NCBI GenBank assembly: GCA_903813345.2
Contig: CAIIXF020000010.1
Coordinates: forward strand, 25,010,425 to 25,074,424
Direction of reading: 5' to 3'
Length of the DNA: 64,000 nt
Origin: Owenia fusiformis
Lineage: Eukaryota > Annelida > Polychaeta > Sabellida > Oweniidae
A model generated the notes under the pieces. The model did not search any database. It saw nothing but the letters and a program-made list of their open reading frames with translations, and was not told the DNA's origin. This document shows positions 1 to 50,735 of this stretch, piece by piece (the first letter of the stretch is position 1; each line of letters starts with the position of its first letter). Both the position numbers and the translations under genes were made by a program.

Positions 1-477
1 AGTTAGGGCGTTTTGAAAGCTCAAAAATCGCTAAATTTGTGCCCCATGTTAAGTCAATGGGAAAAAAGATTTTTTTGAAGTGTAATATAAGAGATATAGA
101 CTGAGTACAGCTTAATATAGTGATAGCCCTTAAAAGAAGGGGACCTCAAAAGCCAACTAGCTTCAAAATCTGGACAGCAAAATACCTAGGTCAAAATCTA
201 GGTCAAATTCATAGTTTTTCCTTATTTTTGTGATTCTGACACTACATTTTAATGATTTGCTTCGAAATTTTGTATACAGGTAGCAAAGAGGGTGCTTATA
301 GTGTTAGCCTTTTGCCGTCAGAAAGTATTTCAACCTACTTTTGAGATATGTTGTCCGAAAAGTAGGTCAAAATAAAAGCATCTCCAAGTTTAACGTATGA
401 GTTATGAATTAAGGGTAGAATTTTCTCAGGAATCTGAATCTGCAAACCAAATTTCACTCCGACTTCCGGTCAAAAAT
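1..477. other. No recognisable gene; AT-rich flank
   Basis: I see no credible coding signal, RNA gene or clear repeat boundary here. Short direct repeats of the phrase 'aggtcaaaat' occur between about 180 and 375. The only open frame begins at 397 and runs into the minisatellite, so it is open because the repeat lacks stops, not because it is coding. Confidence 0.6.
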
Positions 478-11430: not shown

Positions 11431-14400
11431 ATCCAATGTGATATGATTTAAGCAGTCAGTCTAATCTAATTTAAGCAGTCAATCTAATGTAATCTTTAAT
11501 TATTAATTTAATTTAATGAATCGGTTTAATTATGTCGCGATCAAAAAGAAGTGACATATTACCATGGTCTCGTCGGTCTAATCTAAATTTAGGAGTCTAT
11601 CCAATCTAAGCAGTCAATCCAATGTGATCTAATTTAAGCAGTCGGTCTAATGTAATCTTTAATTATTAATTTAATTTAATGAATCCGTTTAATTATGTCA
11701 CGATCAAAAAGAAGTGACATATTACCATGGTCTCGTCGGTCTAATCTAAATTTAGGAGTCTATCCAATCTAAGCAGTGAATCCAATGTGATATAATTTAA
11801 GCAGTCGGTCTTATGTTATCTTTAATTATTAAATTAATTTAATGAATCAGTTTAATTATGTCACGATCAAAAAGAAGTGACATATTACCATGGTCTCGTC
11901 GGTCTAATCTAAATTTAGGAGTCTATCCAATCTAAGCAGTCAATCTAATGTGATCTAATTTAAGCAGTCGGTCTAATCTTATCTTAGGAGTCTACCTAAT
12001 TTAAGTAGTCAATCCAATGTGATATGATTTAAGCAGTCGGTCTAATGTAATCTTTAATTATTAATTTAATTTAATGAATCAGTTTAATTATGTCATGATC
12101 AAAAAGAAGTGGCATATTACCATGGTCTCGTCGGTCTAATCTAAATTTAGGAGTCTATCCAATCTAAGCAGTCAATCCAATGTGATATAATTTAAGCAGT
12201 CGGTCTAATGTAATCTTTAATTATTAATTTAATTTAATGAATCAGTTTAATTATGTCACGATCAAAAAGAAATGACCTATTACCATGGTCTCGTCGGTCT
12301 AATCTAAATTTAGGAGTGTATCCAATCTAAGCAGTCAATCCAATGTGATATAATTTAAGCAGTCGGTCTTATGTAATCTTTAATTATTAATTTAATTTAA
12401 TGAATCAGTTTAATTATGTCAAGATCAAAAAGAAGTGACATGTTACCATGGTCCCGTCGGTCTAATCTAAATTTAGGAGTCTATCCAATATAAGCAGTCA
12501 ATCCAATGTGATATAATTTAAGCAGTCGGTCTAATCTTATCTTAGGAGTCTATCTAATTTAATCAGTCAATATAATGTAATCTTAATCGGAGGAGAAACT
12601 ATATGATGGATGTTCTCCACACCTATGGGCGAGGTCGGGGCCCTAGGGATTTAAGAATCTAATCTAAGCATTTCATCAAATCTAATTTAAGCAATTAGTC
12701 TAATCTAATCTATGGAGTATATTTAATCTAAATAATCAGTATAATCTAATCTAAGGTCTTTAATTATGTCACGACCATATAAGGAAGTGACTTATTACCA
12801 TGGTCTCGTCGGTCTAATCTAAATTTAGGAGTCTATCCAATCTAAGCAGTCAATCCAATGTGATCTAATTTAAGCATTCGGTCTAATCTTATCTTAGGAG
12901 TCTATCTAATTTAAGTAGTCAATCCAATGTGATATGATTTAAGCAGTCGGTCTAATATAATCTTTAATTATTAATTTAATTTAATGAATCTGTTTAATTA
13001 TGTCACAAGTAAAAAGAAGTGACATATTACCATGGTCTCGTCGGTCTAATCTAAATATAGGAGTCTATCCAATCTAAGCAGTCAATCCAATGTGATATAA
13101 TTTAAGCAGTCGGTCTAATGTAATCTTTAATTATTAATTTAATTTAATGAATCCGTTTAATTATGTCACGATCAAAAAGAAGTGACATATTACCATGGTC
13201 TCGTCGGTCTAATCTAAATTTAGGAGTCTATCCAATCTAAGCAGTCAATCCAATGTGATCTAATTTAAGCAGTCGGTCTAATCTTATCTTAGGAGTCTAT
13301 CTAATTTAAGTAGTCAATCCAATGTGATATGATTTAAGCAGTCGGTCTAATGTAATCTTTAATTATTAATTTAATTTAATGAATCCCTTTAATTATGTCA
13401 CGATCAAAAAGAAGTGACATATTACCATGGTCTCGTCGGTCTAATCTAAATTTAGGAGTCTATCCAATCTAAGCAGTCAATCCAATGTGATATAATTTAA
13501 GCAGTCGGTCTAATGTAATCTTTAATTATTAATTTAATTTAATGAATCAGTTTAATTATGTCACGATCAAAAAGAAGTGACATATTACCATGGTCTCGTC
13601 GGTCTAATCTAAATTTAGGAGTGTATCCAATCTAAGCAGTCAATCCAATGTGATCTAATTTAAGCAGTCGGTCTAATCTTATCTTATGAGTCTATCTAAT
13701 TTAAGTAGTCAATCCAATGTGATATGATTTAAGCAGTCGGTCTAATGTAATCTTTAATTATTAATTTAATTTAATGAATCCGTTTAATTATGTCACGATC
13801 AAAAAGAAGTGACATATTACCATGGTATCGTCGGTCTAATCTAAATTAAGGAGTCTATCCAATCTAAGCAGTCGATCCAATGTGATATAATTTAAGCAGT
13901 AGGTCTTATGTAATCTTTAATTATTAAATTAATTTAATGAATCCGTTTACTTATGTCGCGATCAAAAAGAAGTGACATATTACCATGGTCTCGTCGGTCT
14001 AATCTAAATTTAGGAGTCTATCCAATCTAAGCAGTCAATCCAATGTGATCTAATTTAAGCAGTCGGTCTAATGTAATCTTTAATTATTAATTTAATTTAA
14101 TGAATCCGTTTAATTATGTCACGATCAAAAAGAAGTGACATATTACCATGGTCTCGTCGGTCTCATCTAAATTCAGGAGTCTATCCAATCTAAGCAGTCA
14201 ATCCAATGTGATATAATTTAAGCAGTCGGTCTAATGTAATCTTTAATTATTAATTTAATTTAATGAATCAGTTTAATTATGTCACGATCAAAAAGAAGTG
14301 ACATGTTACCATGGTCTCGTCGGTCTAATCTAAATTTAGGAGTCTATCCAATATAAGCAGTCAATCCAATGTGATATAATTTAAGCAGTCGGTCTAATCT

Positions 14401-17241: not shown

Positions 17242-17990
17242 CTGTGTGTGGATGTGGAGGGCCAGTTCACAGCCAGTTGGCCACTGCTGTCCAGATAGAG
17301 ACAATAGAACTCTCAGCCTGAGGACTTTCATAAGGTAACTTTCTTCAGCTTTCAAGAAAATTTTCTTTTGGTACCAGTCAACTGATTGGTTATCATAATT
17401 TCTGAAAGGGACTGTTTTTTAGCTCACATAGTGAGTTTTTGCAATCACTTTCTTGTCCGTCTGTCTGTCCGTCAACAATGTCAAATTGGATTCCCGTTTT
17501 ATATCCCCTACAAATAGTGTGGGGGCCATATTATCAGCCTGGGTGCGTTTGTCCATCTGTCCATTCTTCTGTATATACAACATATTTCTCCAAAACTGCT
17601 ACAGATTTTGCTTTAAGGTTCCAGGGATGATTTGTGAGTACATACAGATTTGGTAGAAAAGATGTTGATGTGGAGGGCCAGTTCAAAGCCAAGATTGCCC
17701 AGCTGGCCACTGCTGCCCAGAGACAATGGAACTTTTAGCCTGGGACTTTCATAAGGTTGGTACCTTTCTTTAGGTTTTAAGAAAATGTTCTTTTGGTATT
17801 ACCACCCATATTCTTGAAAGTAAGTCAACTGATGGGTCATCATAATTACTAAAAGGAACTCACTTGTCTGTCTGTCAGTCTGTCTCTCCGTCAACAATGT
17901 CAAATTGGATTCCCGTTTTATGTACTCTCCAAATAGTGTGGGGGCCATATTATCAGCCTAGACGGCGGCGCGTTTATCCATTTGTCCATC
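17242..17990 (+). repeat. Module C, copy 3 (inside SatB)
   Basis: Third plus-strand copy, with the same junctions. It differs from copy 2 by scattered substitutions and a GGC duplication at GACGGCGGCGCG near its end. Confidence 0.9.
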
Positions 17991-20673: not shown

Positions 20674-21640
20674 TAGCTTCACTGCCTATGCGGCTACACA
20701 GGGTCTGGATGTAAGCCTAGGAGCATGCATTCTGTGGCTACACTATCTACACTGGGTACGATGGTATGCGGTAGCTATGCTAGCTGCACTGGCTGGGCGG
20801 CTACACAGGGTCTAGAAGTATGCCTAGGAGCATACATTCAGTGGCTACGCTAGCTACACTGGGTATGCTTCTACAGAGTGTATAGAGGTAACCTAAGGAG
20901 TATGCATGTCGTGGCTACGCTAGCTACACTGTCTACGCGGCTACAGAAGTTCTGGATGTAAGCCTAGGAGCATGCATTCAGTGGCTCCGCTAGCTACACT
21001 TGCTACGCCACTACAGAGGGTATAGAGGTAACCTTGGGACAATGCATGCGGTGCTTTTGCTAGCCACACTAGTTATTCTTAGGAGCAGGCATTCGGAGGC
21101 TACGCTAGCAACTCTGACTACGCTGCTACACAGGGTCTAGGTATAAGCCTAGGAGCGTGCATTCAGTAGCTACGCTAGTTTCACTGTCTACGCAACTACT
21201 GGTGTATAGATGTAAGCTAAGGAGCGTGCACTCGGTGGCTACGCTAGCTACAATGACCAAGCGACTACAGAGGGTAAAGAGGTAACCTTAGGTGCATGCA
21301 TTTGGTGGCTACGCTAGCTACACTCGCTACGCAGCTACAGAGGTTCTTGAGGTAAGCTTAGGAGCAGGCATTCGGAGGCTACGCTAGCTACACTGACTAC
21401 GCTGCTACACAGGGTCTGGATGTAAGCCTAGCATGCATTCACTGGATACGCTAGCTACAATGGCTACACAGGGTCTGGATGTAAGCCTAGGAGCATGCAT
21501 TCAGTGGCTCCGCAAGCTACATTGGGTACGCTGCTACATAGTGTATAGAGGAAACCTAAGGAACATGCATGCTGTGGCTACGCTAGCTACACTCGCTACG
21601 CTGCTACACAGGGTCTGGATGTAACCCTAGGAGCAGGCCT
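20674..21640 (-). repeat. SatA array, minus orientation, diverged edge
   Basis: Irregular SatA monomers next to SatB, with many private substitutions and some monomers of abnormal length. The variant TGCGGTGCTTTTGCTAGCCA (within 21047-21074) is the reverse complement of a variant at 8029-8056 in the other SatA block. Diverged monomers at an array edge beside homogenised ones inside are normal for satellites shaped by unequal exchange. Confidence 0.93.
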
Positions 21641-30600: not shown

Positions 30601-33600
30601 ACTACATAGTGTATAGAGGAAACCTAAGGAACATGCATGCTGCGGCTACGCTAGCTACACTCGCTACGCTGCTACACAGGGTCTGGATGTAAGCCTAGGA
30701 GCATGCATTAAGTGGCTCCGCTAGCTACACTGGGTACGCTGCTACACAGGGTCTGGATGTAAGCCTAGGAGCATGCATTCAGTGGCTCCGCTAGCTACAC
30801 TGGGTACGCTACTACATAGTGTATAGAGGAAACCTAAGGAACATGCATGCTGCGGCTACGCTAGCTACACTCGCTACGCTGCTACACAGGGTCTGGATGT
30901 AACCCTAGGAGCAGGCCTTCAGTGGCAACGCTAGCTACACTGGGTGCGCTACTACATAGTGTATAGAGGAAACCTAAGGAACATGCATGCTGTGGGTACG
31001 CTAGCTACACTGGGTACGCTACTACATAGTGTATAGAGGAAACCTAAGGAACATGCATGCTGTGGCTACGCTAGCTACACTCGCTACGCTGCTACACAGG
31101 GTCTGGATGTAAGCCTAGGAGCATGCATTCAGTGGCTCCGCTAGCTACACTCGCTACGCTACTACATAGTGTATAGAGGAAACCTAAGGAACATGCATGC
31201 TGTGGCTACGCTAGCTACACTCACTACGCTGCTACACAGGGTCTGGTCTGGATGTAACCCTAGGAGTAGGCCTTCAGTGGCTACGCTAGCTACAATGACT
31301 ACGCTGCTACACAGGGTCTGGATGTAACCCTAGGAGTAGGCCTTCAGTGGCTACGCTAGCTACAATGACTACGCTGCTACACAGGGTCTGGATGTAAGCC
31401 TAGGAGCAGGCCTTCAGTGGCTACGCTAGCTACACTCGCTACGCTGCTACACAGGGTCTGGATGTAACCCTAGGAGCATGCATTCAGTGGCTCCGCTAGC
31501 TACACTCGCTACGCTGCTACACAGAGTCTGGATGTAAGCCTAGGAGCATGCATTCAGTGGCTCCGCTAGCTACACTGGGTACGCTACTACATAGTGTATA
31601 GAGGAAACCTAAGGAACATGCATGCTGTGGCTACGCTAGCTACACTCGCTACGCTGCTACACAGGGTCTGGATGTAACCCTAGGAGCAGGCCTTCAGTGG
31701 CTACGATAGCTACAACGACTACGCTGCTACACAGAGTCTGGATGTAAGCCTAGGAGCATGCATTCAGTGGCTCCACTAGCTACACTGGGTACGCTACTAC
31801 ATAGTGTATAGAGGAAATCTAAGGAACATGCATGCTGTGGCTACGCTAGCTACACTCGCTACGCTGCTACACAGGGTCTGGATGTAAGCCTAGGAGCATG
31901 CATTCAGTGGCTCCGCTAGCTACACTGGGTACGCTACTACATAGTGTATAGAGGAAACCTAAGGAACATGCATGCTGTGGCTACGCTAGCTACACTCGCT
32001 ACGCTGCTACACAGGGTCTGGATGTAACCCTAGGAGCAGGCCTTCAGTGGCTACGATAGCTACAACGACTACGCTGCTACACAGAGTCTGGATGTAAGCC
32101 TAGGAGCATGCATTCAGTGGCTCCACTAGCTACACTGGGTACGCTACTACATAGTGTATAGAGGAAACCTAAGGAACATGCATGCTGTGGCTACGCTAGC
32201 TACACTCGCTACGCTGCTACACAGGGTCTGGATGTAAGCCTAGGAGCATGCATTCAGTGGCTCCGCTAGCTACACTGGGTACGCTACTACATAGTGTATA
32301 GAGGAAACCTAAGGAACATGCATGCTGTGGCTACGCTAGCTACACTCGCTACGCTGCTACACAGGGTCTGGATGTAAGCCTAGGAGCATGCATTCAGTGG
32401 CTCCGCTAGCTACACTGGGTACGCTACTACATAGTGTATAGAGGAAACCTAAGGAACATGCATGCTGTGGCTACGCTAGCTACACTCGCGACACTGCAAC
32501 ACAGGGTCTGGATGTAAGCCTAGGAGCATGCATTAAGTGGCTCCGCTAGCTACACTGGGTACGCTGCTACACAGGGTCTGGATGTAAGCCTAGGAGCATG
32601 CATTCAGTGGCTCCGCTAGCTACACTGGGTACGCTACTACATAGTGTATAGAGGAAACCTAAGGAACATGCATGCTGCGGCTACGCTAGCTACACTCGCT
32701 ACGCTGCTACACAGGGTCTGGATGTAACCCTAGGAGCAGGCCTTCAGTGGCTACGCTAGCTACACTCGCTACGCTGCTACACAGGGTCTGGATGTAACCC
32801 TAGGAGCAGGCCTTCAGTGGCAACGCTAGCTACACTGGGTGCGCTACTACATAGTGTATAGAGGAAACCTAAGGAACATGCATGCTGTGGCTACGCTAGC
32901 TACACTGGGTACGCTACTACATAGTGTATAGAGGAAACCTAAGGAACATGCATGCTGTGGCTACGCTAGCTACACTCACTACGCTGCTACACAGGGTCTG
33001 GATGTAAGCCTAGGAGCATGCATTCAGTGGCTCCGCTAGCTACACTGGGTACGCTACTACATAGTGTATAGAGGAAACCTAAGGAACATGCATGCTGTGG
33101 CTACGCTAGCTACACTCGCTACGCTGCTACACAGGGTCTGGATGTAACCCTAGGAGCAGGCCTTAAGTGGCTACGCTAGCTACAATGACTACGCTGCTAC
33201 ACAGGGTCTGGATGTAAGCCTAGGAGCATGCATTCAGTGGCTCCGCTAGCTACACTGGGTACGCTGCTACACAGGGTCTGGATGTTAGCCTAGGAGCATG
33301 CATTCAGTGGCTCCGCTAGCTACACTGGGTACGCTACTACATAGTGGATAGAAGAAACCTAAGGAACATGCATGCTTGGCTACGCTAGCTACACTCGCTA
33401 CGCTGCTACACAGGGTCTGGATGTAAGCCTAGGAGCAGGCCTTCATTGGCTACGCTAGCTACACTCGCTACGCTGCTACACAGGGTCTGGATGTAACCCT
33501 AGGAGTAGGCCTTCAGTGGCTACGCTAGCTACAATGACTACGCTGCTACACAGGGTCTGGATGTAAGCCTAGGAGCATGCATTCAGTGGCTCCGCTAGGT

Positions 33601-36600
33601 ACACTGGGTACGCTACTACATAGTGTATAGAGGAAACCTAAGGAACATGCATGCTGTGGCTACGCTAGCTACACTCGCTACGCTGCTACACAGGGTCTGG
33701 ATGTAACCCTAGGAGCATGCCTTCAGTGGCTACGCTAGCTACACTGGGTACGCTACTACATAGTGTATAGAGGAAACCTAAGGAACATGCATGCTGTGGC
33801 TACGCTAGCTACACTGGGTACGCTACTACATAGTGTATAGAGGAAACCTAAGGAACATGCATGCTGCGGCTACGCTAGCTACACTCGCTACGCTGCTACA
33901 CAGGGTCTGGATGTAACCCTAGGAGCATGCCTTCAGTGGCTACGCTAGCTACACTGGGTACGCTACTACATAGTGTATAGAGGAAACCTAAGGAACATGC
34001 ATGCTGTGGCTACGCTAGCTACACTGGGTACGCTACTACATAGTGTATAGAGGAAACCTAAGGAACATGCATGCTGCGGCTACGCTAGCTACACTCGCTA
34101 CGCTGCTACACAGGGTCTGGATGTAAGCCTAGGAGCATGCATTCAGTGGCTCCGCTAGCTACACTGGGTACGCTACTACATAGTGTATAGAGGAAACCTA
34201 AGGAACATGCATGCTGTAGCTACGCTAGCTACACTCACTACGCTGCTACACAGGGTCTGGTCTGGATGTAACCCTAGGAGTAGGCCTTCAGTGGCTACGC
34301 TAGCTACAATGACTACGCTGCTACACAGGGTCTGGATGTAAGCCTAGGAGCAGGCCTTCAGTGGCTACGCTAGCTACACTCGCTACGCTGCTACACAGGG
34401 TCTGGATGTAACCCTAGGAGTAGGCCTTCAGTGGCTACGCTAGCTACAATGACTACGCTGCTACACAGGGTCTGGATGTAAGCCTAGGAGCATGCATTCA
34501 GTGGCTCCGCTAGGTACACTGGGTACGCTACTACATAGTGTATAGAGGAAACCTAAGGAACATGCATGCTGTGGCTACGCTAGCTACACTCGCTACGCTG
34601 CTACACAGGGTCTGGTCTGGATGTAACCCTAGGAGTAGGCCTTCAGTGGCTACGCTAGCTACAATGACTACGCTGCTACACAGGGTCTGGATGTAACCCT
34701 AGGAGCAGGCCTTCAGTGGCTACGCTAGCTACACTGGGTACGCTACTACATAGTGTATAGAGGAAACCTAAGGAACATGCATGCTGTGGCTACGCTAGCT
34801 ACACTGGGTACGCTACTACATAGTGTATAGAGGAAACCTAAGGAACATGCATGCTGCGGCTACGCTAGCTACACTCACTACGCTGCTACACAGGGTCTGG
34901 TCTGGATGTAACCCTAGGAGTAGGCCTTCAGTGGCTACGCTAGCTACAATGACTACGCTGCTACACAGGGTCTGGATGTAACCCTAGGAGTAGGCCTTCA
35001 GTGGCTACGCTAGCTACAATGACTACGCTGCTACACAGGGTCTGGATGTAAGCCTAGGAGCATGCATTTAGTGGCTCCGCTAGCTACACTGGGTACGCTG
35101 CTACACAGGGTCTGGATGTTAGCCTAGGAGCATGCCTTCAGTGGCTCCGCTAGCTACACTGGGTACGCTACTACATAGTGTATAGAGGAAACCTAAGGAA
35201 CATGCATGCTGTGGCTACGCTAGCTACACTCGCTACGCTGCTACACAGGGTCTGGATGTAACCCTAGGAGCAGGCCTTCAGTGGCTACGCTAGCTACAAT
35301 GACTACGCTGCTACACAGGGTCTGGATGTAACCCTAGGAGCATGCATTCAGTGGCTCCGCTAGCTACACTGGGTACGCTACTACATAGTGTATAGAGGAA
35401 ACCTAAGGAACATGCATGCTGTGGCTACGGTAGCTACACTCGCTACGCAGCTACACAGGGTCTGGATGTAAGCCTAGGAGCATGCATTCAGTGGCTCCGC
35501 TAGCTACACTGGGTACGCTACTACATAGTGTATAGAGGAAACCTAAGGAACATGCATGCTGCGGCTACGCTAGCTACACTCGCTACGCTGCTACACAGGG
35601 TCTGGATGTAACCCTAGGAGCATGCATTCAGTGGCTCCGCTAGCTACACTGGGTACGCTACTACATAGTGTATAGAGGAAACCTAAGGAACATGCATGCT
35701 GTGGCTACGCTAGCTACACTCGCTACGCTGCTACACAGGGTCTGGATGTAACCCTAGGAGCATGCATTCAGTGGCTCCGCTAGCTACACTGGGTACGCTA
35801 CTACATAGTGTATAGAGGAAACCTAAGGAACATGCATGCTTTGGCTACGCTAGCTACACTCGCTACGCTGCTACACAGGGTCTGGATGTAAGCCTACGAG
35901 TTGGCATTCAGTGGCTCCGCTAGCTACACTGGGTACGCTACTACATAGTGTATAGAGGAAACCTAAGGAACATGCATGCTGTAGCTACGCTAGCTACACT
36001 CACTACGCTGCTACACAGGGTCTGGTCTGGATGTAACCCTAGGAGTAGGCCTTCAGTGGCTACGCTAGCTACAATGACTACGCTGCTACACAGGGTCTGG
36101 ATGTAAGCCTAGGAGCAGGCCTTCAGTGGCTACGCTAGCTACACTCGCTACGCTGCTACACAGGGTCTGGATGTAACCCTAGGAGTAGGCCTTCAGTGGC
36201 TACGCTAGCTACAATGACTACGCTGCTACACAGGGTCTGGATGTAAGCCTAGGAGCATGCATTCAGTGGCTCCGCTAGGTACACTGGGTACGCTACTACA
36301 TAGTGTATAGAGGAAACCTAAGGAACATGCATGCTGTGGCTACGCTAGCTACACTCGCTACGCTGCTACACAGGGTCTGGTCTGGATGTAACCCTAGGAG
36401 TAGGCCTTCAGTGGCTACGCTAGCTACAATGACTACGCTGCTACACAGGGTCTGGATGTAACCCTAGGAGCAGGCCTTCAGTGGCTACGCTAGCTACACT
36501 GGGTACGCTACTACATAGTGTATAGAGGAAACCTAAGGAACATGCATGCTGTGGCTACGCTAGCTACACTGGGTACGCTACTACATAGTGTATAGAGGAA

Positions 36601-39600
36601 ACCTAAGGAACATGCATGCTGCGGCTACGCTAGCTACACTCGCTACGCTGCTACACAGGGTCTGGATGTAAGCCTAGGAGCATGCATTCAGTGGCTCCGC
36701 TAGCTACACTGGGTACGCTACTACATAGTGTATAGAGGAAACCTAAGGAACATGCATGCTGTGGCTACGCTAGCTACACTCACTACGCTGCTACACAGGG
36801 TCTGGTCTGGATGTAACCCTAGGAGTAGGCCTTCAGTGGCTACGCTAGCTACAATGACTACGCTGCTACACAGGGTCTGGATGTAACCCTAGGAGTAGGC
36901 CTTCAGTGGCTACGCTAGCTACAATGACTACGCTGCTACACAGGGTCTGGATGTAAGCCTAGGAGCATGCATTTAGTGGCTCCGCTAGCTACACTGGGTA
37001 CGCTGCTACACAGGGTCTGGATGTTAGCCTAGGAGCATGCATTCAGTGGCTCCGCTAGCTACACTGGGTACGCTACTACATAGTGTATAGAGGAAACCTA
37101 AGGAACATGCATGCTGTGGCTACGCTAGCTACACTCGCTACGCTGCTACACAGGGTCTGGATGTAACCCTAGGAGCAGGCCTTCAGTGGCTACGCTAGCT
37201 ACAATGACTACGCTGCTACACAGGGTCTGGATGTAACCCTAGGAGCATGCATTCAGTGGCTCCGCTAGCTACACTGGGTACGCTACTACATAGTGTATAG
37301 AGGAAACCTAAGGAACATGCATGCTGTGGCTACGGTAGCTACACTCGCTACGCAGCTACACAGGGTCTGGATGTAAGCCTAGGAGCATGCATTCAGTGGC
37401 TCCGCTAGCTACACTGGGTACGCTACTACATAGTGTATAGAGGAAACCTAAGGAACATGCATGCTGCGGCTACGCTAGCTACACTCGCTACGCTGCTACA
37501 CAGGGTCTGGATGTAACCCTAGGAGCATGCATTCAGTGGCTCCGCTAGCTACACTGGGTACGCTACTACATAGTGTATAGAGGAAACCTAAGGAACATGC
37601 ATGCTGTGGCTACGCTAGCTACACTCGCTACGCTGCTACACAGGGTCTGGATGTAACCCTAGGAGCATGCATTCAGTGGCTCCGCTAGCTACACTGGGTA
37701 CGCTACTACATAGTGTATAGAGGAAACCTAAGGAACATGCATGCTTTGGCTACGCTAGCTACACTCGCTACGCTGCTACACAGGGTCTGGATGTAAGCCT
37801 ACGAGTTGGCATTCAGTGGCTCCGCTAGCTACACTGGGTACGCTACTACATAGTGTATAGAGGAAACATAAGGAACATGCATGCTGTGGCTACGCTAGCT
37901 ACACTAGCTACGCTGCTACACAGGATCTGGATGTAACCCTAGGAGCATGCATTCAGTGGCTACGCTAGCTACAATGACAACGCTGCTACACAGGGTCTGG
38001 ATGTAACCCTAGGAGAAGGCCTTCAGTGGCTACGCTAGCTACAATGACTACGCTGCTACACAGGGTCTGGATGTAAGCCTAGGAGCAGGCCTTCAGTGGC
38101 TACGCTAGCTACACTCGCTACGCTGCTACACAGGGTCTGGATGTAACCCTAGGAGTAGGCCTTCAGTGGCTACGCTAGCTACAATGACTACGCTGCTACA
38201 CAGGGTCTGGTCTGGATGTAACCCTAGGAGTAGGCCTTCAGTGGCTACGCTAGCTACAATGACTACGCTGCTACACAGGGTCTGGATGTAACCCTAGGAG
38301 CATGCCTTCAGTGGCTACGCTAGCTACACTGGGTACGCTACTACATAGTGTATAGAGGAAACCTAAGGAACATGCATGCTGTGGCTACGCTAGCTACACT
38401 GGGTACGCTACTACATAGTGTATAGAGGAAACCTAAGGAACATGCATGCTGCGGCTACGCTAGCTACACTCGCTACGCTGCTACACAGGGTCTGGTCTGG
38501 ATGTAACCCTAGGAGTAGGCCTTCAGTGGCTACGCTAGCTACAATGACTACGCTGCTACACAGGGTCTGGATGTAAGCCTAGGAGCATGCATTCAGTGGC
38601 TCCGCTAGCTACACTGGGTACGCTACTACATAGTGTATAGAGGAAACCTAAGGAACATGCATGCTGTGGCTACGCTAGCTACACTGGGTACGCTACTACA
38701 TAGTGTATAGAGGAAACCTAAGGAACATGCATGCTGCGGCTACGCTAGCTACACTCGCTACGCTGCTACACAGGGTCTGGATGTAACCCTAGGAGCATGC
38801 ATTCAGTGGCTACGCTAGCTACAATGACTACGCTGCTACACAGGGTCTGGATGTAACCCTAGGAGCAGGCTTTCAGTGGCTACGCTAGCTACAATGACTA
38901 CGCTGCTACACAGGGTCTGGATGTAACCCTAGGAGAAGGCCTTCAGTGGCTACGCTAGCTACAATGACTACGCTGCTACACAGGGTCTGGATGTAAGCCT
39001 AGGAGCAGGCCTTCAGTGGCTACGCTAGCTACACTCGCTACGCTGCTACACAGGGTCTGGATGTAACCCTAGGAGTAGGCCTTCAGTGGCTACGCTAGCT
39101 ACAATGACTACGCTGCTACACAGGGTCTGGTCTGGATGTAACCCTAGGAGTAGGCCTTCAGTGGCTACGCTAGCTACAATGACTACGCTGCTACACAGGG
39201 TCTGGATGTAACCCTAGGAGCAGGCCTTCAGTGGCTACGCTAGCTACACTGGGTACGCTACTACATAGTGTATAGAGGAAACCTAAGGAACATGCATGCT
39301 GTGGCTACGCTAGCTACACTGGGTACGCTACTACATAGTGTATAGAGGAAACCTAAGGAACATGCATGCTGCGGCTACGCTAGCTACACTCGCTACGCTG
39401 CTACACAGGGTCTGGATGTAAGCCTAGGAGCATGCATTCAGTGGCTCCGCTAGCTACACTGGGTACGCTACTACATAGTGTATAGAGGAAACCTAAGGAA
39501 CATGCATGCTGTGGCTACGCTAGCTACACTCACTACGCTGCTACACAGGGTCTGGTCTGGATGTAACCCTAGGAGTAGGCCTTCAGTGGCTACGCTAGCT

Positions 39601-40500
39601 ACAATGACTACGCTGCTACACAGGGTCTGGATGTAAGCCTAGGAGCAGGCCTTCAGTGGCTACGCTAGCTACACTCGCTACGCTGCTGCTACACAGGGTC
39701 TGGATGTAACCCTAGGAGTAGGCCTTCAGTGGCTACGCTAGCTACAATGACTACGCTGCTACACAGGGTCTGGATGTAAGCCTAGGAGCATGCATTCAGT
39801 GGCTCCGCTAGGTACACTGGGTACGCTACTACATAGTGTACAGAGGAAACCTAAGGAACATGCATGCTGTGGCTACGCTAGCTACACTCGCTACGCTGCT
39901 ACACAGGGTCTGGATGTAACCCTAGGAGCATGCCTTCAGTGGCTACGCTAGCTACACTGGGTACGCTACTACATAGTGTATAGAGGAAACCTAAGGAACA
40001 TGCATGCTGTGGCTACGCTAGCTACACTCGCTACGCTGCTACACAGGGTCTGGATGTAACCCTAGGAGCATGCCTTCAGTGGCTACGCTAGCTACACTGG
40101 GTACGCTACTACATAGTGTATAGAGGAAACCTAAGGAACATGCATGCTGTGGCTACGCTAGCTACACTCACTACGCTGCTACACAGGGTCTGGTCTGGAT
40201 GTAACCCTAGGAGTAGGCCTTCAGTGGCTACGCTAGCTACAATGACTACGCTGCTACACAGGGTCTGGATGTAACCCTAGGAGCATGCCTTCAGTGGCTA
40301 CGCTAGCTACACTGGGTACGCTACTACATAGTGTATAGAGGAAACCTCAGGAACATGCATGCTGTGGCTACGCTAGCTACACTGGGTACGCTACTACATA
40401 GTGTATAGAGGAAACCTAAGGAACATGCATGCTGCGGCTACGCTAGCTACACTCGCTACGCTGCTACACAGGGTCTGGATGTAACCCTAGGAGCAGGCCT
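21641..40500 (-). repeat. SatA array, minus orientation, homogenised core
   Basis: Almost 19 kb of head-to-tail 70-bp monomers in two main classes. Class 1 contains CGCTGCTACACAGGGTCTGG then ATGTAAGCCTAGGAGCATGC or ATGTAACCCTAGGAGCAGGC. Class 2 contains GGGTACGCTACTACATAGTG, TATAGAGGAAACCTAAGGAA and CATGCATGCTG. They often alternate as 140-bp dimers. A 75-bp class 1 variant carries GGTCTGGTCTGG. Rare variants mark long internal duplications: offset 350 (31701/32051), 893 (29521/30414), 1,765-1,905 (34213 to 37328), 9,272-9,342 (24131 to about 26620) and 11,247-11,250 (25460-29250 onto 36707-40500). No gene is present. Confidence 0.97.
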
Positions 40501-41082: not shown

Positions 41083-42718
41083 ATTAGATTAAATTGATAA
41101 GATAAGACTTTTGCTTAGATTAGACCAGACTGACCGCTTAGATTAGATTATACTGAATATTTAGATAAGATATACTTCTAAGTTTGGATTAGACCGATTG
41201 CTTAAATTGGATTTGAATGCCTGCTTAGATTAGATTTATAATTCCCAAGAGCCCTTACCTCGCGCAGAGGCGTGGAGAACACCCATCATATAGTTTCTCC
41301 TCCGACTAAGATTACATTATATTGACTGCTTCAATTAGATAGACTCCTAAGATAAGATTAGACCGACTGCTTAAATTAGATCACATTGGATTGACTGCTT
41401 AGATTGGATAGACTCCTAAATTTAGATTAGACCGACGAGACCATGGTAATATGTCACTTCCTTATGGTCGTGACATAATTAAAGACCTTAGATTAGTTAT
41501 ACTGATTACTTAGATTAAACATACTCCATAGATTAGATTAGAATAATTGCTTAAATTCGATTTGAGGAAATGCTTAGATTAGATTCTTAAATCCCAAGGG
41601 CCCCGACCTCGCCCATAGGTGTGGAGAACATCCATCATATAGTTTCTCCTCCGATTAAGATTACATTATATTGACTGCTTAAATTAGATAGACTCCTAAG
41701 ATAAGATTAGACCGACTGCTTAAATTATATCACATTGGATTGACTACTTAAATTAGATAGACTCCTAAGATAAGATTAGACCGACTGCTTAAATTAGATC
41801 ACATTGGATTGACTGCTTATATTGGATAGACTCCTAAATTTAGATTAGACCGACGAGACCATGGTAACATGTCACTTCTTTTTGATCGTGACATAATTAA
41901 ACTGATTCATTAAATTAAATTAATAATTAAAGATTACATAAGACCGACTGCTTAAATTATATCACATTGGATTGACTGCTTAGATTGGATAGACTCCTAA
42001 ATTTAGATTAGATCGACGAGACCATGGTAATATGTCACTTCTTTTTGATCGCGACATAATTAAACTGATTCATTAAATTAAATTAATAATTAAAGATTAC
42101 ATTAGACCGACTGCTTAAATTATATCACATTGGATTGACTGCTTAGATTGGATAGACTCCTAAATTTAGATTAGACCGACGAGACCATGGTAATATGCCA
42201 CTTCTTTTTGATCGTGACATAATTAAACTGATTCATTAAATTAAATTAATAATTAAAGATTACATTAGACCGACTGCTTAAATTAGATCACATTGGATTG
42301 ACTGCTTAGATTGGATAGACTCCTAAATTTAGATTAGACCGACGAGACCATGGTAATATGTCACTTCTTTTTGATCGTGACATAATTAAACGGATTCATT
42401 AAATTAAATTAATAATTAAAGATTCCATTAGACCGACTGCTTAAATCATATCACATTGGATTGACTACTTAAATTAGATAGACTCCTAAGATAAGATTAG
42501 ACCGACTGCTTAAATTAGATCACATTAGATTGACTGCTTAGATTGGATAGACTCCTAAATTTAGATTAGACCGACGAGACCATGGTAATATGTCACTTCT
42601 TTTTGATCGCGACATAATTAAACTGATTCATTAAAGTAAATTAATAATTAAAGATTACATTAGATTGACTGCTTAAATTAGACTAGACTGACTGCTTAAA
42701 TCATATCACATTGGATTG
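41083..42718 (-). repeat. SatB array, minus orientation, block 1
   Basis: Reverse-complement SatB units (TAGACTCCTAAATTTAGATT, AGACCGACGAGACCATGG, ATGTCACTTCTTTTTGATCG), including two CGGAGGAGAAAC-type variants near 41291 and 41645. Same family and same unit lengths as the plus-strand blocks. Confidence 0.95.
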
Positions 42719-43461
42719 ATGGACAAATGGATAAACGCGCCGTCTAGGCTGATAATATGGCCCCCACACTATTTGGAGAGTACATAAAACGGGAATCCAA
42801 TTTGACATTGTTGACGGAGAGACAGACTGACAGACAGACAAGTGAGTTCCTTTTAGTAATTATGATGACCCATCAGTTGACTTACTTTCAAGAATATGGG
42901 TGGTAATATCAAAAGAACATTTTCTTAAAACCTAAAGAAAGGTACCAACCTTATGAAAGTCCCAGGCTAAGAGTTCCATTGTCTCTGGGCAGCAGTGGCC
43001 AGCTGGGCAATCTTGGCTTTGAACTGGCCCTCCACATCCACATCTTTTCTTCCATATCTGTATGTACTCACAAATCATCCCTGAAACTTAAAAGAAAAAT
43101 CTGTAGCAGTTTTGGAGAAATATGTTGTATATACAGAAGAATGGACAGATGGACAAACGCACCCAGGCTGATAATATGGCCCCCACACTATTTGTAGGGG
43201 ATATAAAACGGGAATCCAATTTGACATTGTTGACAGACAGACAGACGGACAAGAAAGTGATTGCAAAAACTCACTATGTGAGCTAAAAAACAGTCCCTTT
43301 CAGAAATTATGATAACCAATCAGTTGACTGGTACCAAAAGAAAATTTTCTTGAAAGCTGAAGAAAGTTACCTTATGAAAGTCCTCAGGCTGAGAGTTCTA
43401 TTGTCTCTATCTGGACAGCAGTGGCCAACTGGCTGTGAACTGGCCCTCCACATCCACACAC
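42719..43461 (-). repeat. Module C, copy 4 (inside SatB, minus)
   Basis: Full-length reverse copy with the same junctions as copies 1-3 (GATGGACAAATGGATAAACG at one end, CTCCACATCCACACACAG at the other). It carries a few private changes, such as CTTTTCTTCCATATCTG. Confidence 0.9.
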
Positions 43462-46338
43462 AGATTAGATTAAATTGATTAGATAAGACTTTTGCTTAGA
43501 TTAGACCAGACTGACCGCTTAGATTAGATTATACTGAATATTTAGATAAGATATACTTCTAAGTTTGGATTAGACCGATTGCTTAAATTGGATTTGAATG
43601 CCTGCTTAGATTAGATTTATAATTCCCAAGAGCCCTGACCTCGCGCAGAGGCGTGGAGAACACCCATCATATAGTTTCTCCTCCGACTAAGATTACATTA
43701 TATTGACTGCTTAAATTAGATAGACTCCTAAGATAAGATTAGACCGACTGCTTAAATTAGATCACATTGGATTGACTGCTTAGATTGGATAGACTCCTAA
43801 ATTTAGATTAGACCGACGAGACCATGGTAATAAGTCACTTCCTTATGGCCGTGACATAATTAAAGACCTTAGATTAGATTATACTGATTATTTAGATTAA
43901 ATATACTCCATAGATTAGATTAGACTAATTGCTTAAATTAGATTTGAGGAAATGCTTAGATTAGATTCTTAAATCCCAAGGGCCCCGACCTCGCCCATAG
44001 GTGTGGAGAACATCCATCATATAGTTTCTCCTCCGATTAAGATTACATTATATTGACTGCTTAAATTAGATAGACTCCTAAGATAAGATTAGACCGACTG
44101 CTTAAATTATATCACATTGGATTGACTGCTTAGATTGGATAGACTCCTAAATTTAGATTAGACCGACGAGACCATGGTAATATGTCACTTCTTTTTGATC
44201 GTGACATAATTAAACCGATTCATTAAATTAAATTAATAATTAAAGATTACATTAGATTGACTGCTTAAATTATATCACATTGGATTGACTGCTTAGATTG
44301 GATAGACTCCTAAATTTAGATTAGACCGACGAGACCATGGTAATATGTCACTTCTTTTTGATCGCGACATAATTAAACCGATTCATTAAATTAAATTAAT
44401 AATTAAAGATTACATTAGATTGACTGCTTAAATTATATCACATTTGATTGACTGCTTAGATTGGATAGACTCCTAAATTTAGATTAGACCGACGAGACCA
44501 TGGTAATATGTCACTTCTTTTTGATCGTGACATAATTAAACGGACTCATTAAATTAAATTAATAATTAAAGATTACATTAGACCGACTGCTTAAATCATA
44601 TCACATTGGATTGACTACTTAAATTAGATAGACTCCTAAGATAAGATTAGACCGAATGCTTAAATTAGATCACATTGGATTGACTGCTTAGATTGGATAG
44701 ACTCCTAAATTGAGATTAGACCGACGAGACCATGGTAATAAGTCACTTCCTTATGGTCGTGACATAATTAAAGACCTTAGATTAGATTATACTGATTATT
44801 TAGATTAAATATACTCCATAGATTAGATTAGACTAATTGCTTAAATTAGATTTGATGAAATGCTTAGATTAGATCTTTAAATCCCAAGGGCCCCGACCTC
44901 GCCCATAGGTGTGGAGAACATCCATCATATAGTTTCTCCTCCGATTAAGATTACATTATATTGACTGATTAAATTAGATAGACTCCTAAGATAAGATTAG
45001 ACCGACTGATTAAATTATATCACGTTGGATTGACTGCTTATATTGGATAGACTCCTAAATTTAGATTAGACCGACGAGACCATAGTAACATGTCACTTCT
45101 TTTTGATCGTGACATAATTAAACTGATTCATTAAATTAAATTAATAATTAAAGATTACATAAGACCGACTGCTTAAATTATATCACATTGGATTGACTGC
45201 TTAGATTGGATACACTCCTAAATTAAGATTAGACCGACGAGACCATGGTAATATGTAACTTCTTTTTGATCGTGACATAATTTAACTGATTCATTAAATT
45301 AAATTAATAATTAAAGATTACATAAGACCGACTGCTTAAATTATATCACATTGGATTGACTGCTTAGATTGGATAGACTCCTAAATTTAGATTAGACCGA
45401 CGAGACCATGGTAATATGTCACTTCTTTTTGATCGTGACATAATTAAACTGATTCATTAAATTAAATTAATAATTAAAGATTACATTAGACCGACTGCTT
45501 AAATCATATCACATTGGATTGACTACTTAAATTAGATAGACTCCTAAGATAAGATTAGACCGACTGCTTGAATTAGATCACATTAGATTGACTGCTTAGA
45601 TTGGATAGACTCCTAAATTTAGATTAGACCGACGAGACCATGGTAATATGTCACTTCTTTTTGATCGTGACATAATTAAACTGATTCATTAAATTAAATT
45701 AATAATTAAAGATAACATTCGACCGACTGCTTAAATTATATCACATTGGATTGACTGCTTAGATTGGATAGACTCCTAAATTAAGATTAGACCGATGAGA
45801 CTATGGTAATATGTCACTTCTTTTTGATCATTACATAATTAAACGGATTCATTAAATTAAATTAATAATTAAAGATTACATTAGACCGACTGCTTAAATT
45901 AGATCACATTGGATTGACTGCTTAGATTGGATAGACTCCTAAATTTAGATTAGACCGACGAGACCATGGTAATATGTCACTTCTTTTTTATCGTGTCATA
46001 ATTAAACGGATTCATTAAATTAAATTAATAATTAAAGATTACATTAGACCGACTGCTTAAATTATATCACATTGGATTGACTGCTTAGATTGGATAGACT
46101 CCTAAATTTAGATTAGACCGATGAGACCATGGTAATATGTCACTTCTTTTTGATCGTGACATAATTAAACGGATTCATTAAATCAAATTAATAATTAAAG
46201 ATTACATTAGACCGACTGCTTAAATCATATCACATTGGATTGACTACTTAAATTAGATAGACTCCTAAGATAAGATTAGACCGACTGCTTAAATTAGATC
46301 ACATTGGATTGACTGCTTAGATTGGATAGACTCCTAAA
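43462..46338 (-). repeat. SatB array, minus orientation, block 2
   Basis: About 2.9 kb of 163/232-bp SatB units. The last base triplet before the insertion is AAA (46336-46338) within GACTCCTAAA, which is the intact SatB phrase up to that point. Confidence 0.95.
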
Positions 46339-47267
46339 GGATGAGTCTGGGAATGAGTCTGGGTATCGACTTAGAAAATATTGAAAATTGTAATGTCTGA
46401 AAAACCAGCTCAATCACACATATTATTAAACTTCAATATCTTATCCTTCTTCTGAGATTACTAAAATATCAATTTGTATCACAATTGATGAAGAATATTG
46501 GCATCAAAGACAGTGCATATCACTTTGTCAGAATCAATGGCAAATATTAAATGAATTATTTATACAAAAGGTTTGAAACATATCCTCCAAAACATTGCTT
46601 ATTTTCTTTGTATAGACATTGAATGGTATTTCTGGATAAGTGAATTTGTATTTATCTGGGTAATCAAGGGATTATAGTCACTCAAAGTTACTGAGCATCC
46701 AGTTTTGAGACTTCAATTGTGTTGGTGAAGTTACACATATTTCAGTCAAATTCATGCTGAGCACAACATTTTGGTTTCAATTTTATAATCCCTATATATG
46801 ACCCTGGTGATGAAGAGTCAGATTCAGTCAAAAAACCCAAACTGGAAAACTGTGCTCATTGTGAAAACTAAAAGTGAAGCAACTTTTTTTCTGATATTTC
46901 TTACATCGAATGGCAGCCATTTTGTTTTTCCCCCTTCAAATTAAACTGGCGGGAAATTCAAAAATTTGAAAAAAATTTTAATTCTTAAATATATTTCAAA
47001 AATATGATTTTCTTTTTAATTCTTCATGGGTCTTAAGTTATTTCTTCTTTGTATGTCATACATGTTGCCATTGGTGTTTTTTTCTATGATAATGACTATT
47101 TCTTGTTTGTTGGGCTACTTATTCTGACTCTCAGCAGGGGGCTAATTATGCATCAAAACTCATGAAAAAGTAAATATACTTATCAAATATGACTAGGACA
47201 GTAATAAAAACCATATTTCATATACATTTGACTGAGGGACCAAAAGGGCATATACCCAGACACATCC
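46339..47267. mobile_element. Spy-like non-autonomous DNA transposon inserted in SatB
   Basis: A 929-bp non-satellite sequence splits a SatB unit. The left flank ends CTCCTAAA and the right flank begins TTTAGATTAG. Joined, they give CTCCTAAATTTAGATTAG, the intact SatB phrase seen in dozens of neighbouring units, so nothing was duplicated or lost. The termini are imperfect inverted repeats: GGATGAGTCTGGGAAT at the left and, reverse complemented, GGATGTGTCTGGGTAT at the right. The left end has a second direct copy, ATGAGTCTGGGTAT. The interior is AT-rich with no long open frame, hence non-autonomous. Insertion between AAA and TTT without target duplication is the hallmark described for Spy transposons, which are distantly related to IS5, ISL2EU and PIF/Harbinger. 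A Helitron would need 5'-TC and CTRR-3' ends, which are absent. The family assignment is inference; the boundaries are direct. Confidence 0.8.
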
Positions 47268-47425
47268 TTTAGATTAGACCGACGAGCCCATGGTAATATG
47301 TCACTTCTTTTTGATCGCGACATAATTAAACCGATTCATTAAATTAAATTAATAATTAAAGATTACATTAGATTGACTGCTTAAATTAGATTAGACTGAC
47401 TGCTTAAATCATATCACATTGGATT
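47268..47425 (-). repeat. SatB array, minus orientation, block 3
   Basis: Remainder of the SatB unit split by the Spy-like insertion, resuming at TTTAGATTAGACCGACGAG and leading into module C. Confidence 0.93.
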
Positions 47426-48170
47426 GATGGACAAATGGATAAACGCGCCGTCTAGGCTGATAATATGGCCCCCACACTATTTGGAGAGTACATAAAACGG
47501 GAATCCAATTTGACATTGTTGACGGAGAGACAGACTGACAGACAGACAAGTGAGTTCCTTTAGTAATTATGATGACCCATCAGTTGACTTACTTTCAAGA
47601 ATATGGGTGGTAATACCAAAAGAACATTTTCTTAAAACCTAAAGAAAGGTACCAACCTTATGAAAGTCCCAGGCTAAGAGTTCCATTGTCTCTGGGCAGC
47701 AGTGGCCAGCTGGGCAATTTTGGCTTTGAACTGGCCCTCCACATCCACATCTTTTCTACCACATCTGTATGTACTCACAAATCATCCCTGAAACTTAAAA
47801 GCAAAATCTGTAGCAGTTTTGGAGAAATATGTTGTATATACAGAAGAATGGACAGATGGACAAACGCACCCAGGCTGATAATATGGCCCCCACACTATTT
47901 GTAGGGGATATAAAACGGGAATCCAATTTGACATTGTTGACGGACAGACAGATGGACAAGAAAGTGATTGCAAAAACTCACTATGTGAGCTAAAAAACAG
48001 TCCCTTTCAGAAATTATGATAACAAATCAGTTGACTTGTACCAAAAGAAAATTTTCTTGAAAGCTGAAGAAAGTTACCTTATGAAAGTACTCAGGCTTAG
48101 AGTTCTATTGTCTCTATCTGGACAGCAGTGGCCAACTGGCTGTGAACTGGCCCTCCACATCCACGCACAG
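47426..48170 (-). repeat. Module C, copy 5 (inside SatB, minus)
   Basis: Full-length reverse copy, same junctions as copies 1-4. The flanking SatB context (CAGACTGACAGACAGACAAG inside, CGCACAGATTAGATTAAATT outside) matches copy 2 closely. Confidence 0.9.
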
Positions 48171-50735
48171 ATTAGATTAAATTGATAAGATAAGACTTTT
48201 GCTTAGATTAGACCAGACTGACCGCTTAGATTAGATTATACTGAATATTTAGATAAGATATACTTCTAAGTTTGGATTAGACCGATTGCTTAAATTGGAT
48301 TTGAATGCCTGCTTAGATTAGATTTATAATTCCCAAGAGCCCTTACCTCGCGCAGAGGCGTGGAGAACACCCATCATATAGTTTCTCCTCTGACTAAGAT
48401 TACATTATATTGACTGCTTAAATTAGATAGACTCCTAAGATAAGATTAGACCGACTGCTTAAATTAGATCACATTGGATTGACTGCTTAGATTGGATAGA
48501 CTCCTAAATTTAGATTAGACCGACGAGACCATGGTAATATGTCACTTCCTTATGGTCGTGACATAATTAAAGACCTTAGATTAGTTATACTGATTATCTA
48601 GATTAAACATACTCCATAGATTAGATTAGACTAATTGCTTAAATTCGATTTGAGGAAATGCTTAGATTAGATTCTTAAATCCCAAGGGCCCCGACCTCGC
48701 TCATAGGTGTGGAGAACATCCATCATATAGTTTCTCCTCCGATTAAGATTACATTATATTGACTGCTTAAATTAGATAGACTCCTAAGATAAGATTAGAC
48801 CGACTGCTTAAATTATATCACATTTGATTGACTACTTAATATAGATAGACTCCTAAGATAAGATTAGACCGACTGCTTAAATTAGATCACATTGGATTGA
48901 CTGCTTAGATTGGATAGACTCCTAAATTTAGATTAGACCGACGAGACCATGGTAATAAGTCACTTCCTTATGGTCGTGACATAATTAAAGACCTTAGATT
49001 AGATTATACTGATTATTTAGATTAAATATACTCCATAGATTAGATTAGACTAATTGCTTAAATTAGATTTGATGAAATGCTTAGATTAGATTCTTAAATC
49101 CCAAGGGCCCCGACCTCGCCCATAGGTGTGGAGAACATCCATCATATAGTTTCTCCTCCGATTAAGATTACATTATATTGACTGATTAAATTAGATAGAC
49201 TCCTAAGATAAGATTAGACCGACTGCTTAAATTATATCACATTGGATTGACTGCTTATATTGGATAGACTCCTAAATTTAGATTAGACCGACGAGACCAT
49301 GGTAACATGTCACTTCTTTTTGATCGTGACATAATTAAACTGATTCATTAAATTAAATTAATAATTAAAGATTACATAAGACCGACTGCTTAAATTATAT
49401 CACATTGGATTGACTGCTTATATTGGATAGACTCCTAAATTTAGATTAGACAGACATGGTAATAAGTCACTTCCTTATGGTCGTGACATAATTAAAGACC
49501 TTAGATTAGATTATACTGATTATTTGGATTAAATATACTCCATAGATTAGATTAGACTAATTGCTTAAATTAGATTTGATGAAATGCTTAGATTAGATTC
49601 TTAAATCCCAAGGGCCCCGACCTCGCCCATAGGTGTGGAGAACACCCATCATATAGTTTCTCCTCCGACTAAGATTACATTAGATTAACTGCTTACATTA
49701 GATAGACTCCTAAGATAAGATTAGACCGACTGCTTAAATTATATCACATTGGATTGACTGCTTAGATTGGATAAACTCCTAAATTTAGATTAGACCGACG
49801 AGACCATGGTAATATGTCACTTCTTTTTGATCGTGACATAATTAAACTGATTCATTAAATTAAATTAATAATTAAAGATTACATTAGACCGACTGCTTAA
49901 ATTATATCACATTGGATTGACTGCTTAGATTGGATAGACTCCTAAATTTAGATTAGACCGACGAGACCATGGTAATAAGCCACTTCTTTTTGATCGTGAC
50001 ATAATTAAACTGATTCATTAAATTAAATTAATAATTAAAGATTACATTAGATTGACTGCTTAAATTAGATAGACTCCTAAGATAAGATTAGACCGACTGC
50101 TTAAATTAGATTTGAATGACTGCTTAGATTAGATACTCTTAAATTTAGATTAGACCGACGAGACCATGGTAATATGTCACTTCTTTTTGATCGTGACATG
50201 ATTAAACTGATTCATTAAATTAAATTAATAATTAAAGATTACATTAGATTGACTGCTTAAATTAGATAGACTCCTAAGATAAGATTAGACCGACTGCTTA
50301 AATTATATCACATTGGATTGACTGCTTAGATGTGAAAGACTCCTAAATTTAGATTAGACCGACGAGACCATGGTAATATGTCACTTCTTTTTGATCGTGA
50401 CATGATTAAACTGATTCATTAAATTAAATTAATAATTAAAGATTATATTAGATTGACTGCTTAAATTAGATAGACTCCTAAGATAAGATAAGACCGACTG
50501 CTTAAATCATATCACATTGGATTGACTACTTAAATTAGATAGACTCCTATGATAAGATTAGACCGACTGCTTAAATTATATCACATTGGATTGACTGTTT
50601 AGATTGGATAGACTCCTAAATTTAGATTAGACCGACAAGACCATGGTTAATATGTCACCACTTTTTGGTCGTGACATAATTATATTGACTCCTTAGATTA
50701 GATAATAAGGATTATTTAGATTAGATATACTTTGA
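48171..50735 (-). repeat. SatB array, minus orientation, block 4 (outer edge)
   Basis: SatB units that become irregular towards the right end: a deletion in AGATTAGACAGACATGG near 49445, and changed units near 50327-50340 and 50560-50735. The satellite fades out at about 50735 ('tagatatacttt') into unique sequence, a normal diverged edge. Confidence 0.92.

What the first reader, a model, noticed from the sequence alone, without database searches (positions are those of the whole stretch)
46339..47267. Spy-like transposon caught in a satellite with a perfect empty site (AAA|TTT, no duplication)
The 929-bp insertion splits the SatB phrase CCTAAATTTAGATTAG exactly between AAA and TTT, with no duplicated or lost base. 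Dozens of uninterrupted SatB units nearby serve as pre-insertion controls. The ends are imperfect inverted repeats GGATG(A/T)GTCTGGG(A/T)AT. Precise AAA/TTT insertion without target duplication is the defining property described for Spy transposons, and this copy has no coding capacity, so it would be a non-autonomous member. A clean natural empty/filled pair like this is rare.
Basis: partly seen in the sequence, partly recalled or inferred. Interest (0 to 1): 0.85.

Follow-up and report, generated by a model that had tools for sequence, protein, structure and literature searches.

The report
Non-autonomous Spy transposon inside a satellite
A short DNA transposon sits exactly between AAA and TTT of a satellite repeat without duplicating any base, has many sister copies at other AAA|TTT sites, and has a gene-carrying relative in the same genome, so it is a new but fairly ordinary member of the known Spy group.

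Summary
The 929-bp insert at 46339-47267 splits AAATTT of a satellite unit with no base gained or lost; the joined flanks match an intact stretch at 119 of 120 bases without gaps. All 39 copies read (of the 40 listed, window copy included) are flanked AAA|TTT. Genome-wide, 425 of 448 exact ends are preceded by AAA. Two other copies (L009, L010) have gap-free empty sites elsewhere, one identical over 90 of 90 bases. No target duplication appears in any register printed. The genome holds a coding relative (L044, L045) with nearly the same ends, AAA/TTT flanks, and a two-exon gene for a predicted 666-aa DDE_Tnp_4 transposase with a C-terminal SWIM-like motif. The short element is collinear with its two ends and 5' leader. 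Five Spy-like transposases form one clade apart from the other 17 DDE rows of this genome. No published Spy protein could be placed in that tree. The host looks like an annelid, perhaps Owenia; the Spy paper read lists only arthropods, cnidarians and molluscs. A new member of a known kind.

The parts
46339..47267 (+). Non-autonomous Spy-type element, 929 bp; strand chosen so that the left end with the 12-bp repeat comes first
46336..46338 (+). AAA half of the split target AAATTT
   Evidence: AAA in 39 of 39 copies read
47268..47270 (+). TTT half of the split target AAATTT
   Evidence: TTT in 39 of 39 copies read
46339..46354 (+). Left terminal inverted repeat GGATGAGTCTGGGAAT
46351..46366 (+). 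Inner copy of the terminal motif, shifted by 12 bp (GAATGAGTCTGGGTAT); the coding relatives L044 and L045 have a like arrangement
47252..47267 (-). Right terminal inverted repeat (reads GGATGTGTCTGGGTAT on the minus strand)
46339..46455 (+). Left end, 75-76% identical to bases 1-117 of the coding relatives L045 and L044
46749..46879 (+). Stretch 71% identical to bases 419-549 of the coding relatives (before the first ATG of the predicted transposase gene), collinear
47122..47267 (+). Right end, 81% identical to the last 146 bases of the coding relatives
46279..46338 (+). Left satellite (SatB) flank used in the empty-site test
47268..47327 (+). Right satellite (SatB) flank used in the empty-site test
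11528..11647 (-). Uninterrupted satellite stretch, 119 of 120 identical to the joined flanks: the pre-insertion control
344..433 (-). Unoccupied relative of the host repeat of a sister copy (L010), 90 bases, no gap, 91% identical; it reads AAACTT at the junction, one base off AAATTT

Best explanation
This is an internally deleted, non-coding member of a Spy-type DNA transposon family, moved in trans. Shown: it was inserted exactly between AAA and TTT of AAATTT with zero net change, like the sisters tested, and an element with nearly the same ends (identical 13 bases on the left, 12 of 13 on the right, a like 12-bp repeat inside the left end) and the same flanks encodes a DDE transposase. Inferred: a transposase of this type (predicted 666 aa, catalytic DDE domain, C-terminal SWIM-like zinc finger) binds both ends, cuts the element out at its outermost base pair, and joins the two 3' ends to directly opposed phosphodiester bonds at the centre of AAATTT. 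With no stagger there is no gap to fill, so no target duplication arises. Also inferred: the short element arose when a relative of L044/L045 lost its gene but kept its two ends and its 5' leader.
For: AAA|TTT flanks in 39 of 39 copies, with no comparable constancy at the neighbouring positions 4 to 12. 425 of 448 exact termini genome-wide are preceded by AAA, and the reversed control pattern occurs 0 times. Gap-free empty sites at three independent loci: SatB, 119/120; L009, 8 of 8 fetched copies of its host repeat gap-free and one identical 90/90; L010, 6 of 6 gap-free at 98-99%. A fourth, L026, is gap-free over 51 bases at 90%. No direct repeat above the shuffled level in the rows printed. 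Coding relatives L044 (3718 bp) and L045 (3505 bp) with shared ends and AAA/TTT flanks. DDE_Tnp_4 over the curated cut-off. GT...AG phase-0 intron model giving 107 + 559 aa in L044. Collinear homology of the short element with these relatives. A second Spy-like family, L041/L042, also has AAA|GG...CC|TTT boundaries.
Against: No published Spy transposase was available, so the clade carries the Spy label by insertion behaviour and not by comparison with named members. L044/L045 are only 71-81% identical to the short element where they align, so they are relatives and not its demonstrated source. The intron model departs from the single open reading frame described for Spy and has no transcript evidence. 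Zero-stagger chemistry is inferred from products only. Of the 100 ends listed, eight lack AAA by comparison; three of these are inner repeat units, and the other five were not followed up.
Confidence: 0.95

Rival explanations
1. AAA and TTT are the outermost bases of the element itself, which inserts anywhere without duplication or with a duplication further out.
For: AAA and TTT are invariant in all 39 copies read, which by itself cannot separate element from target.
Against: Empty sites already hold AAATTT: SatB, and all 14 fetched places for L009 and L010. No direct repeat lies outside AAA/TTT above chance (offset 3: 2-bp repeats in 2 of 39 copies against a shuffled mean of 2.40). Two weaker local relatives read AAACTT (L010 against window 344-433) and AAATCT (L026 against L006), one base off.
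Confidence: 0.02
2. The element belongs to a neighbouring PHIS group (ISL2EU with AT duplications, or PIF/Harbinger with TWA duplications) and the clean site is a coincidence.
For: The transposase domain is the same Pfam family, and elements with THAP-bearing transposases beside YqaJ genes, which I take for ISL2EU-like (recalled trait), are present in this genome.
Against: No 2- or 3-bp duplication above chance; three clean empty sites; the transposase of the matching coding relative lies in a five-row clade, 100/100, that excludes the ISL2EU-like rows.
Confidence: 0.03
3. A Helitron-like rolling-circle element, which also inserts without duplication at A|T (recalled).
For: There is no target duplication and the insertion point lies between A and T.
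Against: Terminal inverted repeats at both ends, an invariant six-base target, and a DDE transposase in the relative with nearly the same ends.
Confidence: 0.005

Closest known systems
Spy transposons (PHIS superfamily; PMC4482050 and PMC11304231, passages seen)
   Same: Insertion between AAA and TTT without duplication; DDE transposase near 700 aa (here a predicted 666 aa, and a 687-aa frame in L041/L042); terminal inverted repeats; probable invertebrate host.
   Different: The element in the window is non-coding. The coding relative has a predicted intron, whereas the passages describe one open reading frame. The probable host phylum, Annelida, is not among the three listed (Arthropoda, Cnidaria, Mollusca).
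ISL2EU (sister of Spy in PMC11304231, passage seen)
   Same: DDE_Tnp_4 catalytic domain; elements that look ISL2EU-like by coding content occur in the same genome (L046, L047).
   Different: By PMC4482050 it makes AT duplications. In L046 and L047 the transposases carry THAP and HTH_Tnp_4 domains beside a separate YqaJ gene; the Spy-like ones scanned show neither THAP nor HTH_Tnp_4 in Pfam and have a C-terminal SWIM-like motif.
PIF/Harbinger
   Same: Same broad DDE family.
   Different: By PMC4482050 it makes TWA duplications. None is seen here.

Membership tests
Spy | Insertion between AAA and TTT | tested here: met
   39 of 39 copies read; 425 of 448 exact ends preceded by AAA
Spy | No target site duplication, shown by empty sites | tested here: met
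   SatB, L009 and L010 empty sites gap-free; no direct repeat above chance in the registers printed
Spy | Terminal inverted repeats | tested here: met
   14 of 16 positions match in the window copy
Spy | Autonomous member with an IS5/PIF-type DDE transposase of about 700 aa | tested here: met
   L044 and L045: DDE_Tnp_4, E 3.8e-14 for L044; 107 + 559 aa model for L044. Activity itself was not testable.
Spy | Single uninterrupted open reading frame | tested here: not met
   L044 needs a 650-bp intron, and L045 also has the frame in two pieces. L041/L042, of another family, have an uninterrupted 687-aa frame. The passage seen states this of intact Spy elements in general; I do not treat it as defining, because AAATTT insertion and lack of duplication are what PMC4482050 names as distinctive.
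Spy | Transposase in the Spy clade, sister to ISL2EU | tested here: inconclusive
   Five Spy-like rows form one clade, 100/100, apart from 17 other DDE rows of this genome; no published Spy sequence was in the tree
ISL2EU | AT target duplication | tested here: not met
PIF/Harbinger | TWA target duplication | tested here: not met

The most novel reading that the evidence does not exclude
Spy-type transposases are a DDE core fused to a C-terminal SWIM zinc finger (WYC.C..G.R..GCCAH), a part that in the ISL2EU-like elements L046 and L047 of this genome sits in the separate YqaJ protein. This fused finger helps hold the target so that both strands are joined at directly opposed bonds, giving zero stagger, and Spy extends into annelids.
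Probability: 0.1. Interest if true: 0.6.

Novelty: new member of a known kind. Interest (0 to 1): 0.35.

Why it matters
Few transposons insert without leaving a duplication. This genome supplies a short family with hundreds of termini, several gap-free before/after site pairs, and two closely similar coding relatives, so the zero-stagger rule can be counted in nature at one-base resolution. If the host is an annelid, it adds a phylum to the range given in PMC11304231. The SWIM-like motif at the end of the Spy-like transposases is a testable lead on how Spy differs from its sister groups; a sequence search found no solved structure related to the transposase.

Tried and rejected
A large ends-only pair (L001, 5.45 kb) looked like an autonomous candidate. 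It has no frame of 80 aa or more and proved to be a short element split at its base 458/459 by another insertion.

L002 looked like a 4-kb element with two like ends. It is two short elements in opposite orientation with an RT-like frame (my reading of the letters) between them.

AAA/TTT as part of the element, duplications outside it, ISL2EU or Harbinger membership and a Helitron were considered and rejected (see rivals).

A search for relatives of the transposase in viral contigs gave none, and in solved structures none. Boundaries of the pairs L047/L050, L048/L051 and L052/L053 were too unclear to serve as a duplication-positive control; no such control is claimed. Local matches of joined flanks that contained gaps (L003, L006 in two of three, L018, L021, one of three for L026) were not counted as clean empty sites, and neither was the third L006 match, which is gap-free but reads AAA|AAT. 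I first took the 1-105 matches as a sign that L009 and L010 lie in one repeat; the letters show two different host repeats.

Full report
The observation. The uninterrupted phrase CCTAAATTTAGATTAG is found 49 times in the window and in none of 100 shuffles. When the 60 bases on each side are joined and compared with the rest of the window, 102 of 104 alignments span the junction, 96 of the 102 without a gap; the best is 119 of 120 identical. A 32-base word centred on the junction occurs 41 times elsewhere in the window. The zero-change insertion is therefore real and is not a matter of where the boundary is drawn.

The family. A search of the window's own genome (498 Mb, 525 contigs) scored 40 of 758 candidates and listed 40 places at 94-100% identity. 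I read 39 of these 40, the window copy included, and left out the last-listed one (C8:2714022). All 39 have AAA before and TTT after; the positions next to them are mixed. In L034 a look-alike upstream confused the first script; its boundary at the place given is AAA|TTT like the rest. The 39 copies differ from their majority sequence by 1.5-2.8%, mean 2.1%; this is biased downward, because the best matches to the window were chosen. The exact end motif GGATGNGTCTGGGNAT occurs 448 times, its reversed control 0 times, and 425 of the 448 are preceded by AAA. Of the 100 places listed, compared by eye, eight lack AAA, and three of these are the inner repeat unit of a longer end; the other five were not examined.

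Empty sites beyond the satellite. The joined flanks of L010 match the window at 344-433 over 90 bases without a gap, at 91%, though that relative reads AAACTT at the junction. A genome search with the joined flanks of five copies (L009-L013) returned 42 matches from 40 scored of 1852 candidates, in substance to the L009 or the L010 part, so the other three copies remain untested there. Fourteen of those 42 places were fetched: 8 of 8 for L009 are gap-free across the junction, one identical at 90 of 90 bases, and 6 of 6 for L010 are gap-free at 98-99%; all 14 hold AAATTT at the junction. The host repeats of L009 and L010 are different sequences. L026 has a gap-free local match over 51 bases at 90% that reads AAATTT, and a weaker one at 86% with AAATCT. 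Matches with gaps or a non-fitting junction were not counted. Direct repeats of 2 to 10 bases at offsets 0 to 4 from the boundary were compared with 500 shuffles; in the rows printed (2, 3, 4, 5 and 8 bases) the observed counts stay at the shuffled level, for example 2 of 39 against a mean of 2.40 for 2-bp repeats outside AAA/TTT.

The coding relative. The DDE_Tnp_4 search scored 150 of 269 candidates. I fetched nine stretches first, chosen mainly for long frames. Two of them (L044 on C4, L045 on C7) have the end motif on both sides of the transposase: AAA|GGATGAGTCTGGGGATGAGTCAGGG... on one side...CCCAGACTCATCC|TTT on the other, 3718 and 3505 bp long (boundaries also from the pairwise comparison). 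A third, L049, holds a short element beside a transposase fragment. None of the 20 further stretches shows the motif with up to two mismatches, but 16 of these are only about 1.5 kb long. Compared with the short element, the outermost 13 bases are identical on the left and 12 of 13 on the right, and a like 12-bp repeat stands inside the left end. The gene reads as exon 1 of 107 aa, a GT...AG intron of 650 bp in L044 that holds a tandem repeat, and exon 2 of 559 aa; this is a model without transcript evidence. L044 and L045 are 97.9% identical over 2.5 kb that includes exon 2. The catalytic domain scores 53 bits against a cut-off of 24.8. The short element aligns collinearly with these relatives at its first 117 bases (75-76%), at 411-541 (71%) and at its last 146 bases (81%). 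It therefore looks like an internal-deletion form of a relative, and its direct parent was not found. A genome search with the exon-2 frame gives two near-identical matches, then proteins at 48% and 41% identity. The 41% family, L041 and L042, is 99.9% identical over 3531 bp between its two copies, including AAA|GG...CC|TTT at the boundaries and different flanks beyond, which suggests very recent movement.

Relationship. In a tree of 22 DDE rows of this genome, the five Spy-like rows (L041, L043, L044, L049, L067) are one side of a branch with 100/100 support and in all of 200 bootstrap trees; L046, L047 and L048, whose transposases carry THAP domains (L046 and L047 beside a YqaJ gene), lie on the other side. 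The tree warns of long branches elsewhere, and its root is for drawing only. The C.C...GCCAH motif was seen in L041, L043, L044 and L049 (in L049 the stretch ends just after it), and in separate pieces of L066 and L067 in one further frame each. Of the frames over 250 aa in ten control loci, the ten other DDE-bearing frames lack it, and the YqaJ frames of L046 and L047 have one; seven of the ten control stretches reach only 500 bases beyond the DDE match. Pfam's SWIM model reports it only for L041 and below the cut-off, so SWIM is my reading of the motif.

Literature. PMC4482050 (passages) describes Spy by preference for AAATTT and lack of duplications, ISL2EU by AT and PIF/Harbinger by TWA duplications, and says that some non-autonomous PHIS elements might have been missed. 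PMC11304231 (passages) describes insertion between AAA and TTT without duplication, one reading frame, transposases of about 700 aa in the five elements tested, activity of two of them in human cells, and a range of Arthropoda, Cnidaria and Mollusca; the words annelid, SWIM and intron were not found in its main text. The founding Spy paper (Han et al. 2014, recalled) is not held. Searches for PHIS/Spy with annelid, Spy with SWIM and Owenia with transposon and MITE listed no title that reports this family; these are listings, and they cover only the held library. PMC10294476 (passages) mentions Spy once, as a group without duplications.

Host. Twelve contigs, C1 to C12, sum to about 477 of 498 Mb (contig lengths). 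PMC9977687 (passages) gives 505.8 Mb and 12 chromosome-scale scaffolds for the annelid Owenia fusiformis. The genome has three matches to the erythrocruorin linker domain, 0 in the 14 control genomes, which are not animals I could name, and two of the three places match hemoglobin linker chains in solved structures at E 0.0004 and 0.0025. An annelid is likely; the species is a guess.

Verdict. Spy transposons are known, and one has been put forward as a gene-transfer tool (PMC11304231), so this is a well-documented new family of a known kind. What lifts it above routine is the quality of the site pairs, the coding relative and the probable new phylum.

Noticed in passing
window 9534-20673, 21080-40495, 41334-50630: A 70-bp satellite array of about 276 copies lies between two stretches of the SatB satellite that run in opposite orientations, a large palindrome-like layout.
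   Followed up: no
L001 551-5084: A 4.5-kb insertion inside a short Spy element, with inverted ends (GCGCAGTCAGATGTCC) and apparently a TA duplication, like a Tc1/mariner element (my reading).
   Followed up: partly
L002 51-954 and 3146-4086: Two short Spy elements in opposite orientation, about 2.2 kb apart, flank a frame of about 200 aa that looks RT-like by eye.
   Followed up: partly
L049 1-1941: A short Spy element sits at AAA|TTT directly at the edge of the frame of another Spy-like transposase.
   Followed up: no
L044 and L045, transposase intron: The predicted intron consists largely of a tandem repeat with a period of about 139 bp whose extent differs between the two otherwise similar copies.
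   Followed up: partly
L041 2457-5987 and L042 2524-6054: A second Spy-like family with a 687-aa frame; the two copies differ at 3 of 3531 bases, hence very young.
   Followed up: partly
G000 C3:6711783-6711825: Two AAA-preceded end motifs lie 24 bases apart in the same orientation, perhaps one insertion next to the end of another.
   Followed up: no
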